Shown: piece by piece, positions 17,595-63,921 of the stretch
Layout: every line of letters begins with the position of its first letter
Position numbering within the stretch: position 1 is the first letter of the stretch
Assembly: GCA_015654535.1 (NCBI GenBank)
Contig: JAATGU010000014.1
Coordinates: forward strand, 1-64,000
Source: Bacteroidales bacterium
GTDB lineage: Bacteria; Bacteroidota; Bacteroidia; Bacteroidales; Bacteroidaceae
Reading direction: 5' to 3'
Length of the DNA stretch: 64,000 nucleotides
Translations under genes and position numbers: made by a program
Notes under the pieces: generated by a model
Databases searched by the model: none
Told to the model about the DNA's origin: nothing
Seen by the model: only the letters and a program-made list of their open reading frames with translations

Positions 17595-18542
17595 ATGAAT
17601 AGAATATGTGAGCTTTTTGGAATTCAGTATCCTATTATTCAAGCAGGAATGGTGTGGTGTAGTGGATGGCGTTTAGCCTCTGCAGTAAGTAATGCCGGCG
17701 GATTAGGTTTGATTGGAGCAGGTTCTATGCATCCAGATGTTTTGCGGGAGCACATTCAAAAATGCAGAGCGGCAACAGATAAACCTTTTGGAGTTAATAT
17801 TCCACTGATGTATCCTCAAATTGAGGAGATTATGAAGATTGTGGTTGAAGAGCGGGTAAAGATTGTCTTTACTTCAGCAGGAAATCCTAAAGCTTGGACT
17901 ACTTATTTAAAGCAACACGAAGTGACCGTGACGCATGTGGTTTCCAGTGCTAAGTTTGCCGAAAAGTGTGAAGCAGCGGGAGTGGATGCCATTGTGGCAG
18001 AGGGTTTTGAAGCAGGCGGGCACAATGGAAGAGAAGAAACCACTACCTTTTGTCTTATTCCTTCCGTCCGAAAAGCAACGACTCTTCCTTTGATCTCTGC
18101 GGGCGGTATTGCTACTGGCGCAGGAATGCTTGCGGCAATTACTTTGGGAGCGGAAGGTGTTCAGATGGGCACACGTTTTGCATTGACAAATGAAAGCTCG
18201 GCACATCAATATTTTAAAGATTTTTGCCTAAGTCTCAATGAAGGTGACACTAAACTGCTATTAAAGAAACTGGCTCCAGCTCGTCTGGCTAAAGGTAAAT
18301 TTTTCTCTGAAGTAGAAGAAGCTGAGGCTCGGGGTGCATCTGTGGAAGAGATGCGTGAACTGCTAGGCAAAGGTCGTGCAAAGAAAGGAATTTTTGAAGG
18401 AAACTTAGAAGAAGGAGAACTGGAAATAGGTCAAGTAACCTCCCTGCTTCATGAGTTAAAGTCGGCTGCGGAAGTAGTAAAAGAGGTGATCGATGAATAT
18501 AATGCCTCTAAACAGGCTATTTCTGAACTTACTTCTTTTTAG
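17595..18542 (+). CDS. Nitronate monooxygenase / FabK-like FMN oxidoreductase
   Basis: FMN-binding TIM-barrel protein of 315 residues in the 2-nitropropane dioxygenase family. Visible are the N-terminal YPIIQAGMVW, SNAGGLGLIGAGS, the middle AIVAEGFEAGGHNGRE carrying the catalytic-position His, the phosphate-binding PLISAGGIATGAGMLAAI, and GVQMGTRFALTNES. The family spans nitronate detoxification and enoyl-ACP reduction (FabK); the sequence alone does not separate these. It is probably the last gene of the unit; a 22-bp repeat array starts 70 bp downstream. Confidence 0.9.
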   Translation: MNRICELFGIQYPIIQAGMVWCSGWRLASAVSNAGGLGLIGAGSMHPDVLREHIQKCRAATDKPFGVNIPLMYPQIEEIMKIVVEERVKIVFTSAGNPKAWTTYLKQHEVTVTHVVSSAKFAEKCEAAGVDAIVAEGFEAGGHNGREETTTFCLIPSVRKATTLPLISAGGIATGAGMLAAITLGAEGVQMGTRFALTNESSAHQYFKDFCLSLNEGDTKLLLKKLAPARLAKGKFFSEVEEAEARGASVEEMRELLGKGRAKKGIFEGNLEEGELEIGQVTSLLHELKSAAEVVKEVIDEYNASKQAISELTSF

Positions 18543-18612
18543 GAATCTACGGATCTTGATCTCTTAAACGATTAATCTCTTAATGTAATCTGATATTAAA
18601 TATTCATCTAAT

Positions 18613-18700
18613 TCTGTACAAAAGAATACATTGTTTTGTACAAGATAAAAGTATCTTTTGTACAAAAGAAAATAATATTTTGTACAAAATGAATTGATTA
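18613..18700. repeat. 22-bp tandem repeat array A (four GTAC-core units)
   Basis: Four GTAC cores start at 18616, 18638, 18660 and 18682, exactly 22 bp apart. The units read TYTGTACAAAA at the left with an AT-rich, less conserved right part. Most cores extend to the palindrome TTTTGTACAAAA. No fifth unit is seen on either side. The regular two-helical-turn spacing would put all cores on one face of the DNA. The core matches the array at 42644-42731. Confidence 0.9.
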
Positions 18701-19105
18701 TATACTGACGATCTTTACGTACTTTTTAGCCTAAGGGCTATTCTTTGGTTTATAAAATCAGACTGCTAAGTAATGTATTTTAATAAATGATTCCTTTTAA
18801 AGGTTGATTTATAGTGAAATAATTATAAATTAAGTAGCTGGTTCTACTAATAATGCTCGATAAAGGTGATAGATGAACCCCCAAAACGCCTTTTTTGTGA
18901 CGGATAAGTGATGAATGAATATGCATTTAATAAAAATAAGTTCTGTAAGTCAATGCGTTAAGTTGGGATCGTGATAGGTGACGACTGGAGTTGGATAAAA
19001 TGTTTCCGATAGCAGGTAGAGAGTTGTGCTCTAGATTTAATTTTTTTATATCGGCGCATATAAACACAGATAATTGTTGCCCTATATGAGGCTGGTGAAA
19101 ATAGA

Positions 19106-19159: not shown

Positions 19160-20266
19160 TTATAAACTCATTGCCTCATATTTTAATCCAAAAGTATGCG
19201 CAACGGCTGGATAGGTAACTTTTCCATTTACTATGTTGAGACCTAGAGCCAGACTGCTGTCTTCTTTGCAGGCTTGCTTCCATCCTTTGTTGGCCAACAT
19301 CACAACGTAAGGAAAAGTTGCGTTGGTCAACGCTAAGGTAGAGGTATAAGGTACTGCTCCGGGAATGTTTGCTACGCAGTAGTGCACAATTCCATCTACT
19401 GTATATTGTGGTTCCGTATGTGTGGTGGGGTGAGAAGTCTCAAAGCATCCACCCTGATCGATGGCAACATCTACCATTAAGGTTCCTTTTCTGAGTAGCT
19501 TTAGCATATCGCGGGTAATTAAGTGAGGGGCTTTGGCTCCGGGGATGAGTACTGCTCCGATCACTAAATCACAAGTAGGCAGTTCTTCTTCGATGTTGTG
19601 AGTGGAAGAATAAAGTGTTTTCACATTGAGTGGCATCACTTCACTTAGATAGCGCATACGTGGAAGAGAAATATCTGCTATTGTGACGTCGGCTCCCATT
19701 CCTGCGGCTACAATTGCTGCGTTGGAACCCACTACGCCTCCTCCAAGTATAAGTACTTTCGCTGGTTTTACACCTGGAACGCCTCCCATGAGAAGTCCTT
19801 TCCCTCCTTGGGGTTTTTCAAGAAAACGGGTACCTTCCTGTACCGCCATTTTTCCCGCCACTTCGGACATAGGAATCAGCAAAGGTAAAGATCGATCTGG
19901 TTTTTCTACTGTTTCATAAGCAATACAGATTGCTCCACTTTCAAGCATGGCAAAAGTTAGTTCTTTTTCTGATGCAAAGTGGAAATAGGTAAATAAAAGC
20001 TGATTTGGCTTAATGAGTTTATATTCGGCCTCAATCGGTTCTTTTACTTTAACAATCATTTAGGCTATCGCATAAATCTCTTCAATAGTGGACAACATGT
20101 GTGCTCCTGCCGCTATATAGGCATCATCCGGAAATCCACTGTTAATACCTGCCGCCTGCTGTACGTATACTGTGTGGCCTTCTTTTATTAATTCTTTTGC
20201 TCCGCCAGGGGTAAGCGCTACCCGGCTCTCATTGTTTTTAATTTCTTTAGGAATACCGATAATCAT
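19160..20266 (-). pseudogene. ald: Alanine dehydrogenase interrupted by one in-frame stop
   Basis: L-alanine:NAD oxidoreductase gene of normal overall length (368 codons plus one internal stop). The first 68 codons (20266-20063) encode the family N-terminus MIIGIPKEIKNNESRVALTP with the substrate-binding Arg. A TAA at 20062-20060 then interrupts the frame. The same frame continues with ATG at 20059 for 299 codons, with VKVKEP (catalytic Lys), MSEVAG, LEKPQGGKG, the NAD fold GGGVVGSNAA, the D-containing AIDQGG and NIPGAVP. Homologues carry a Glu or Asp at the stop position, so a single G-to-T change of GAA explains it. Because TAA is directly followed by ATG, two polypeptides made by restart remain possible. 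A sequencing error is the other alternative. Confidence 0.85.
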
Positions 20267-42643: not shown

Positions 42644-42731
42644 CCTGTACAGAAGATTACTTTCTTCTGTACAAAACAAAACATACTTCCGTACAAAAGA
42701 ATGTAATCTTTTGTACAGAATTAAAATAAGA
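42644..42731. repeat. 22-bp tandem repeat array B (four GTAC-core units)
   Basis: GTAC cores start at 42647, 42669, 42691 and 42713, exactly 22 bp apart. Units read YYTGTACARAA on the left with an AT-rich right part; the second half of unit 3 and the start of unit 4 form TCTTTTGTACAGAA. Core, period and copy number are the same as array A, 24 kb away, while the spacers differ. It ends 17 bp before the tolC-like start. Confidence 0.9.
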
Positions 42732-63371: not shown

Positions 63372-63459
63372 AGTCGTGACTCTGGTTTCTTAAGGTCACG
63401 TCCCTAATAATATAGCCTCATGTCCCTATTATATCAAGGTCATGACCCTAATCTTAATT
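63372..63459. repeat. 22-bp tandem repeat array C (four TCATG-core units)
   Basis: Four units begin at 63372, 63394, 63416 and 63438, exactly 22 bp apart. Their left parts read AGTCGTGACTCT, GGTCACGTCCCT, CCTCATGTCCCT and GGTCATGACCCT, followed by AT-rich spacers. The last contains the perfect palindrome GGTCATGACC. Period and copy number equal those of arrays A and B, but the core is different. Confidence 0.88.
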
Positions 63460-63516: not shown

Positions 63517-63921
63517 ATGGCAATTCGTTACAGCATTCACACCTATACACTTAAAAATGGTGCGACGGGAGATGTGAAAAAATCCAATTGGGTGAGCGCA
63601 AAGAGTAAAAATAATTATCGGACAGAAGATCTGGCAGAAGAATTAAGTGGGGGCTCTCCTGCGAAGAAAGGGGAGATGCTGAGTGCCTTTACCAGGATAG
63701 CGGCCTGCATTGAGGCAAAACTAAAGGATGGTCATAGCGTTACCATTGATGGATACGGCACTTTTCAATTAACCGTGCAGATTAAAGATGGTCAGGAGGA
63801 TTCGAATTTTCGGGCGGAATCCGTGGAATTAAAGAACGTGGTGTTCAATGCCACTCGTCAGGCAAAGAAAAGAATTGATGCCGCCGGATTTGAACGCTAT
63901 AATGAAGATGTTCATCCTTAA
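63517..63921 (+). CDS. HU-like DNA-binding protein (TIGR01201/HU-related family)
   Basis: A 134-residue histone-like protein longer than HU. The start MAIRYSIHTYTLKNGATGDVKKSNWVSAK is the family's extra N-terminal segment; the HU-like core follows (LAEELSGGSPAKKGEMLSAFTRIAACIEAKLKDGHSVTIDGYGTFQLTVQ). The C-terminus VELKNVVFNATRQAKKRID replaces the standard HU arm. In Bacteroides these occur in many copies, often beside accessory loci. It is preceded by repeat array C in its leader. The window ends 79 bp after its stop, so its operon is not visible. Confidence 0.88.
   Translation: MAIRYSIHTYTLKNGATGDVKKSNWVSAKSKNNYRTEDLAEELSGGSPAKKGEMLSAFTRIAACIEAKLKDGHSVTIDGYGTFQLTVQIKDGQEDSNFRAESVELKNVVFNATRQAKKRIDAAGFERYNEDVHP

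What the first reader, a model, noticed from the sequence alone, without database searches (positions are those of the whole stretch)
18613..18700. Four-unit, exact 22-bp-period array with palindromic GTAC core (array A)
Cores at 18616, 18638, 18660 and 18682 are spaced by exactly 22 bp, close to two helical turns, so a protein could bind all four on one face, as with plasmid iterons or cooperative operators. Most cores extend to TTTTGTACAAAA. The array lies between convergent genes, with no obvious promoter target, and is matched by array B 24 kb away and in layout by array C. Conserved period and copy number with diverged spacers argue for selection on spacing. I know no named Bacteroides element of this kind.
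Basis: seen in the sequence. Interest (0 to 1): 0.78.

Follow-up and report, generated by a model that had tools for sequence, protein, structure and literature searches.

The report
Address arrays for HU-family proteins
The four evenly spaced mirror-symmetric DNA marks seen here are one of about fifty-four such arrays in this bacterium's chromosome, and are most likely landing sites for a histone-like protein whose own gene sits just behind one of the arrays; many of its sister proteins appear to have arrays of their own.

Summary
Array A (18616-18685) has four GTAC cores exactly 22 bp apart. The genome has 55 exact four-core arrays (reversed control 0), about 54 of array A's type. They are intergenic and spread over the chromosome. 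In a 360-kb stretch compared between two related species, 10 of 10 have a counterpart at the orthologous site (7 intact, none empty); GTAC cores stay identical while flanks decay.

The likely binder is HU-HIG (PF18291), a HU-fold protein. One array lies 66 bp upstream of an HU-HIG gene. Close orthologues (86-88% identical) were found only in the genomes with 52-61 such arrays. Many HU-HIG paralogues, including window 63517-63921, have their own 22/23-bp palindrome array with a private core upstream (19 of 28 in a second set, against 33 of 492 control genes). Protein similarity weakly predicts core similarity (Mantel p=0.007 below 60% identity).

Inferred: HU-HIG dimers bind the four palindromes on one DNA face, autoregulate their gene and build architectural complexes at dispersed arrays. 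There is no binding experiment; several array types have no adjacent HU-HIG gene; the role of the dispersed arrays is a guess.

The parts
18616..18685 (.). Array A: four GTAC-centred palindromes, period 22 bp; likely footprint about 18594-18707
   Evidence: flank signal at -18 and +87 in the 49-array profile
42647..42716 (.). Array B: same type, between two co-directional genes (permease-like, and TolC-family outer-membrane protein)
63373..63446 (.). Array C: four palindromes with GGTCATGACC-like core, period 22 bp, 71 bp upstream of the HU-HIG gene; its type also occurs at C11 and C69 of the genome
   Evidence: (p 0.010)
63517..63921 (+). HU-HIG protein gene (134 aa, PF18291), a paralogue of the proposed binder of arrays A and B
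   Evidence: (E 2.5e-17)
17595..18542 (+). Upstream neighbour of array A: FabK-like (TIGR03151, E 2.1e-92, below cut-off)
19160..20059 (-). Convergent neighbour of array A: alanine dehydrogenase (TIGR00518, above cut-off)

Best explanation
Array A is a chromosomal binding array for a sequence-specific HU-fold protein of the HU-HIG family, encoded at G000:C128:6761-7198, 66 bp downstream of another array of the same type. Shown by computation: the array family, its conservation, and the association of HU-HIG genes with such arrays. Inferred: HU-HIG homodimers bind the palindromes, one every two helical turns, so that four dimers sit on one DNA face; HU-type bending in phase would wrap or loop the 90-110 bp site. 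At the HU-HIG promoter this gives autoregulation. At the dispersed arrays it most likely builds fixed architectural complexes along the chromosome rather than controlling the adjacent gene. Paralogues such as the one at window 63517 do the same with their own array (array C).
For: (1) HU-HIG at C128 has an array of array A's type 66 bp upstream; the same layout (66-68 bp) in G003, G026 and B. luti. (2) Phylogenetic profile: close orthologues (87-88%) in 3 of 61 genomes, exactly those with 55, 61 and 52 arrays, plus B. luti (86%, 58 arrays). (3) Generality: 16 of 45 unique HU-HIG upstream regions in set 1 and 19 of 28 rows in set 2 have a 22/23-bp palindromic array, against 33 of 492 other genes (Fisher 2e-7 and 1e-14). 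(4) Cores are private to the paralogue, and protein similarity predicts core similarity: Mantel r 0.40, p 0.0002 for 33 arrays; r 0.22, p 0.007 for 26 representatives below 60% identity. (5) Selection: GTAC cores 64 of 64 and 112 of 112 identical in orthologous arrays, far flanks 0.43 and 0.72. (6) Mirror positions vary like protein half-sites, not base pairs. (7) HU fold of the C128 protein: Pfam, profile against PDB, AlphaFold2 pLDDT 85.9 with Foldseek and VIA matches to 4fmr and HU proteins. (8) Placement ignores gene orientation.
Against: No binding data. For the listed arrays of B. heparinolyticus (7 places), G015 (17), P. gordonii (4 of 6 matches listed) and G031 (10 places) no HU-HIG gene lies within 2 kb, and in G001 (9 listed places) two lie 1.3-1.7 kb away (compared by hand). 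HU-HIG proteins of the FRPGK-type and the Gly-rich clades of set 1 have no array. Three B. heparinolyticus paralogues 78-89% identical have quite different cores, which a simple protein-sets-the-core rule does not predict. In the own genome L250 has no array and L249 has none by the automatic test (p 0.109-0.208). Control genes also carry 22-bp arrays (33 of 492), mostly copies of dispersed types. The fold match says nothing about sequence specificity.
Confidence: 0.72

Rival explanations
1. The arrays are operators of a large regulon: the binder (HU-HIG or another factor) controls transcription of the genes next to each array.
For: Arrays at HU-HIG promoters lie 20-176 bp before the ATG; array B lies 33 bp before a TolC-type gene.
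Against: Contexts 38 co-directional, 17 divergent, 14 convergent against 41.1, 14.2 and 13.7 expected from available intergenic length; in co-directional gaps 28 arrays lie nearer the upstream stop and 10 nearer the downstream start (p 0.005).
Confidence: 0.15
2. The arrays are a mobile palindromic repeat (MITE- or REPIN-like) that has spread and now sits passively.
For: Several 70-bp arrays within G003 are identical; array A shares longer flanks with other own copies.
Against: 10 of 10 traced arrays have a counterpart at the orthologous place, none is an empty site; cores are 100% kept while flanks decay.
Confidence: 0.05
3. HU-HIG recognises a DNA shape (palindromes able to extrude as cruciforms or hairpins) rather than a sequence, and the core sequences merely drift.
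For: Cores differ even among paralogues 78-89% identical; HU-family proteins bind such structures (established).
Against: One core is kept in about 54 arrays per genome and is invariant between species; at spacer positions 7 and 12, 80 of 147 own spacers would be mismatched in a hairpin.
Confidence: 0.08
4. Nucleoid-occlusion or macrodomain sites like those of SlmA, Noc or MatP.
For: Similar copy number and dispersed palindromes (recalled).
Against: No exclusion from or restriction to the terminus in G003: about 15, 15, 18 and 11 arrays per quarter (counted by hand, last quarter by subtraction), with ter near 2.0-2.1 Mb by sampled GC skew.
Confidence: 0.03

Closest known systems
HU-HIG family (PF18291), expanded in Bacteroidota (Burroughs et al. 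2017, recalled; not in the library)
   Same: The protein partner belongs to it by Pfam score and by HU fold
   Different: As far as I recall no DNA sites were described for it; here its genes are tied to private tandem palindrome arrays
Plasmid iterons with Rep3 initiators
   Same: 22-bp tandem units just upstream of the gene of the presumed binder
   Different: Units here are palindromic, chromosomal and dispersed; no Rep3 gene beside arrays A-C
REP/BIME elements with RAYT (recalled; listing)
   Same: Intergenic palindromes dispersed in a genome, with a related copy beside the gene of the protein
   Different: Fixed four-unit 22-bp array, HU-fold protein, positions conserved
Dispersed nucleoid-protein sites: SlmA, Noc, MatP (recalled)
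   Same: Tens of palindromic sites over a chromosome
   Different: Four-site arrays; no terminus bias in G003
BrickBuilt MITE of Porphyromonas gingivalis (PMC4596501, passages read)
   Same: Tandem short units in a Bacteroidales genome
   Different: 23-nt direct repeats with terminal inverted repeats, 19 elements in one strain
P. gingivalis HU PG0121 at the capsule locus (PMC3969353, passages read)
   Same: A HU-family protein linked to a large palindromic region in Bacteroidales
   Different: Ordinary HU and one 77-bp inverted repeat; specificity left open there

Membership tests
HU-HIG (PF18291), for the C128 protein and window 63517-63921 | Profile score above the curated cut-off | tested here: met
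   98.7 and 63.5 bits against 26.2
HU-HIG (PF18291), for the C128 protein | HU/IHF fold | tested here: met
   profile hits to HU and IHF in PDB; model matches to 4fmr and HU chains
HU-HIG (PF18291) | Extra wHTH, Ig or Gly-rich part in the C128 protein | tested here: inconclusive
   Pfam showed only HU-type families; the tail is a basic SKPRGRKPIRRK, low confidence in the model
Plasmid iterons (Rep3) | Rep initiator gene beside the array | tested here: not met
   neighbours of arrays A, B and C annotated are not Rep; true cases elsewhere
MITE / REPIN | Presence-absence at orthologous sites (mobility) | tested here: not met
   10 of 10 counterparts in one 360-kb comparison; a RAYT partner was not sought
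RNA hairpins / terminators | Compensatory pairing in the spacers | tested here: not met
   mirror positions covary in the non-pairing sense
Nucleoid-occlusion or Ter-domain sites | Exclusion from, or restriction to, the terminus | tested here: not met
   G003 only
Sequence-specific binding sites of a HU-HIG protein | Direct binding | not testable with these tools
   needs EMSA or ChIP

The most novel reading that the evidence does not exclude
Bacteroidales have an address-code system: a repertoire of HU-fold proteins (42 PF18291 matches in Parabacteroides gordonii), many with a private tandem array of about four palindromes at 22-23 bp before the gene, whose specificity changes from paralogue to paralogue; in some lineages one address has been spread over the chromosome (about 54 sites here) and kept by selection, giving a sequence-addressed bacterial chromatin in which four bent dimers wrap each site.
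Probability: 0.42. Interest if true: 0.94.

Novelty: new variant of a known kind. Interest (0 to 1): 0.86.

Why it matters
HU-family proteins are the textbook example of DNA benders with little sequence specificity. This ties an expanded, little-understood branch of them to exact DNA addresses, which makes its function directly testable by binding assay and ChIP. It supplies a list of about 54 predicted sites per chromosome in a group of gut bacteria whose chromosome organisation is little known, and the natural series of paralogue plus private palindrome is a data set for learning how a HU fold might read sequence.

Tried and rejected
Set aside: chance; RNA hairpins; operators for neighbour genes and bidirectional terminators; recent mobility; nucleoid-occlusion or Ter sites; plasmid iterons for this genome. 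Shared neighbour genes between array types: at over 45% identity only one adjacent gene was shared between an own array and an array of another type (Colivivens L111), about what I would expect by chance (rough estimate). Viral contigs: 2 stretches matched the four-core TGTACA pattern; by eye they are other tandem repeats, and no HU-HIG-like ORF was found in the stretches fetched. A PDB search with four close orthologues gave 0 hits; the 43-row profile gave 35, all HU, IHF or TF1 type by name. A first palindrome scan was too strict and was repeated with lower thresholds. Literature; listings and passages only; nothing seen describes these arrays. Absence from print is known only for that library and those terms.

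Weak points in the counts. HU-HIG loci are the best-scoring matches only, at most 30 per search, and set 1 contains four orthologues of one lineage. Rows lacking the N-terminus or with under 200 bp upstream were dropped. In set 2 one row is a second, shorter ORF at L344, counted as a miss. The control set includes stretches chosen around arrays (G030, part of G003), which raises its rate; of its 27 printed rows at S>=1.3 and period 22/23, 16 are copies of the main GTAC type, 7 are other array types and 4 look like AT-rich noise (my reading). On the tree 17 of 18 array labels rest on p<=0.05 at 21-23 bp; L249 was labelled by eye. L239 and L265 were labelled as lacking arrays, yet pass the threshold weakly when only periods 21-23 are tried.

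Full report
OBSERVATION. Array A is as described: GTAC at 18616, 18638, 18660, 18682, with array B at 42647-42716. At periods 8-59 these are the only GTAC runs of three or more in the window, and 200 dinucleotide shuffles of the window give none.

GENOME SCALE. The own genome (4.13 Mb, 160 contigs) has 55 exact four-core arrays, reversed control 0, and 115 triples, control 1. At least one of the 55 (C66:13441) has another spacer type and was left out of the 49-array profile. Of 51 arrays looked at, 50 have exactly four cores and one has three. The unit consensus is about GTACARAASAATNNATTSTTYT, symmetric about the core and about the spacer centre; outer positions -18 (A in 40 of 49) and +87 (T in 43 of 49) suggest a footprint of about 110 bp. 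Mirror positions in the spacers vary in the non-pairing sense: at positions 7 and 12, 80 of 147 spacers would be mismatched in a hairpin, and both halves are off-consensus in only 1. That suits protein half-sites.

RELATIVES. The four-core pattern matched 17 of 61 genomes, all of one genus; 0 of 24 genomes of other families of the order. Counts in named genomes: B. luti 58, B. heparinolyticus 11, Parabacteroides goldsteinii 6, P. gordonii 6.

PLACEMENT. Over 69 arrays with two flanking genes (own, G003, B. luti) contexts are 38 co-directional, 17 divergent and 14 convergent, against 41.1, 14.2 and 13.7 expected from available intergenic length; five further own arrays had a contig edge (an earlier gene model gave 24, 10, 12, 3 edge and 2 inside doubtful ORFs for 51 own arrays). 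In co-directional gaps 28 lie nearer the upstream stop and 10 nearer the downstream start (p 0.005). On the near-complete chromosome of G003 the arrays number about 15, 15, 18 and 11 per quarter (my count; the last by subtraction because the listing stops at 3.16 Mb); sampled GC skew puts ori near 0 and ter near 2.0-2.1 Mb. G003's total of 61 includes two on contig C1 that look like a duplicate of part of C2.

EVOLUTION. Four of 14 B. luti array loci matched an own array at the orthologous place; the other ten found no counterpart among the own array loci, which does not show absence. In a 360-kb stretch of G003 syntenic with B. luti all 10 main-type arrays have a counterpart: seven intact, one minus exactly one 22-bp unit, one with a 1-bp deletion, one degenerate. 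A three-core array of another type in that stretch was not conserved. Identity by position, own against luti (4 pairs): cores 64 of 64, arms 0.91, spacer centres 0.48, far flanks 0.43; G003 against luti (7 intact pairs): cores 112 of 112, far flanks 0.72. Only pairs with intact cores entered these counts, so the 100% is partly by choice; the decay of the flanks is not.

THE PARTNER. A scan for tandem palindromes of any sequence peaks at period 22. Array C lies 71 bp upstream of window 63517-63921, an HU-HIG protein (PF18291). The own genome gives 13 PF18291 matches, 8 of them full-length HU-HIG. Six of these 8 have a significant array (p<=0.02) within 220 bp upstream; L249 has one by eye only (p 0.109-0.208), L250 none. 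The HU-HIG at C128:6761 has an array of array A's type 66 bp upstream. Orthologues of that protein (87-88%) occur in 3 of 61 genomes, exactly those with 55, 61 and 52 arrays, and in B. luti (86%) with 58, each with the array 66-68 bp upstream. The array types listed for G001, G007, G009, G015, G018, G030 and G031 differ; the types in G002, G012, G019, G025, G033, G034 and G035 were not seen. All four orthologues share an identical SKPRGRKPIRRK tail, which resembles an AT-hook (recalled motif).

GENERALITY. Set 1: 16 of 45 unique HU-HIG upstream regions reach S>=1.25 at period 22 or 23; control 33 of 492 other genes (Fisher 2e-7). Set 2, from six genomes: 19 of 28 rows (Fisher 1e-14). In the 37 arrays of both sets that pass when periods 21-23 are tried, the period is 22 in 28, 23 in 8 and 21 in 1; units number 3 in 14, 4 in 19, 5 in 2, 6 in 2. 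Cores are private, for example CCAAGG, CAGCTG, CACGTACGTG, CATGTACATG, AAATTAATTT, CCTAGG, CTATAG, GCATATGC. On a tree of 43 HU-HIG proteins the array label needs 3 changes against 14.1 on shuffling, 0 of 500 as low. Protein and core similarity correlate. The CACGTACGTG type in G030 and G001, a Prevotellaceae MAG (L070, 71 bp) and a Parabacteroides MAG (G070, 71 bp) repeat the pattern of a GTAC-cored array just upstream of an HU-HIG gene. Array C's type also occurs at two further places in the own genome.

AGAINST. No HU-HIG gene within 2 kb of the listed arrays of B. heparinolyticus (7 places), G015 (17), P. gordonii (4 listed) and G031 (10 listed); in G001 two of 9 listed places lie 1.3-1.7 kb from one. 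FRPGK-type HU-HIG proteins and most Gly-rich ones of set 1 lack arrays, whereas three Gly-rich ones of B. heparinolyticus have 23-bp arrays with different cores although the proteins are 78-89% identical. Nothing here is a binding experiment.

MECHANISM (inferred). HU dimers bend DNA (established). Palindromes suit a homodimer; 22 bp places successive dimers on one face; four in-phase bends would wrap or loop about 90 bp. Close to its promoter this should regulate the HU-HIG gene; in the C128 case a Bacteroides-type -7 element (recalled consensus) follows the array in all four orthologues, while in others such an element precedes it. At the dispersed sites, whose positions ignore gene orientation and stand back from starts, an architectural role is the better guess.

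KNOWN OR NEW. The layout recalls iterons and REP/RAYT, and dispersed nucleoid-protein sites are a known kind. I know of no HU-superfamily protein with private tandem palindromic arrays, and ten searches of an open-licence library showed none.

Noticed in passing
window 18590-18800: Array A is part of a longer dispersed repeat: its right flank is shared with L039 for at least about 110 bp, and shorter flanks with L018, L049 and L061.
   Followed up: partly
L236:4204 (G003), L214:9848 (B. luti), L231:9320 and L202 near 1726 (G003): Further 22-bp palindromic arrays with other cores (CTCCGGAG-like, CCATGG, GCGC-like) not next to an HU-HIG gene in the stretches held.
   Followed up: partly
L205:4753 and L247:16901 (G003): CATGTACATG arrays upstream of genes other than HU-HIG; the same type precedes HU-HIG genes in the own genome (L254) and, similarly, in G070.
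   Followed up: no
L260 (G000:C114:12318-12515): A broken HU-HIG copy that still has a CATGTACATG array before it.
   Followed up: no
L341, L347, L335 (B. heparinolyticus): Three HU-HIG paralogues 78-89% identical with three different palindromic cores at 23 bp: a natural specificity switch, or a sign that the protein does not set the core.
   Followed up: partly
L069, L073, L077, L116, L137: 22-bp units beside Rep3 initiator genes: ordinary plasmid iterons caught by the same pattern.
   Followed up: yes
L084, L109, L112, L119: In Algoriphagus, Cyclobacteriaceae and a Spirosoma-labelled MAG a GTAC array precedes an AAA_14/DUF4143 gene, with a GidB-type gene on the other side in the one locus annotated.
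   Followed up: no
G003 contig C1: C1 seems to duplicate part of C2 (same two arrays and same HU-HIG gene), perhaps an assembly artefact.
   Followed up: no
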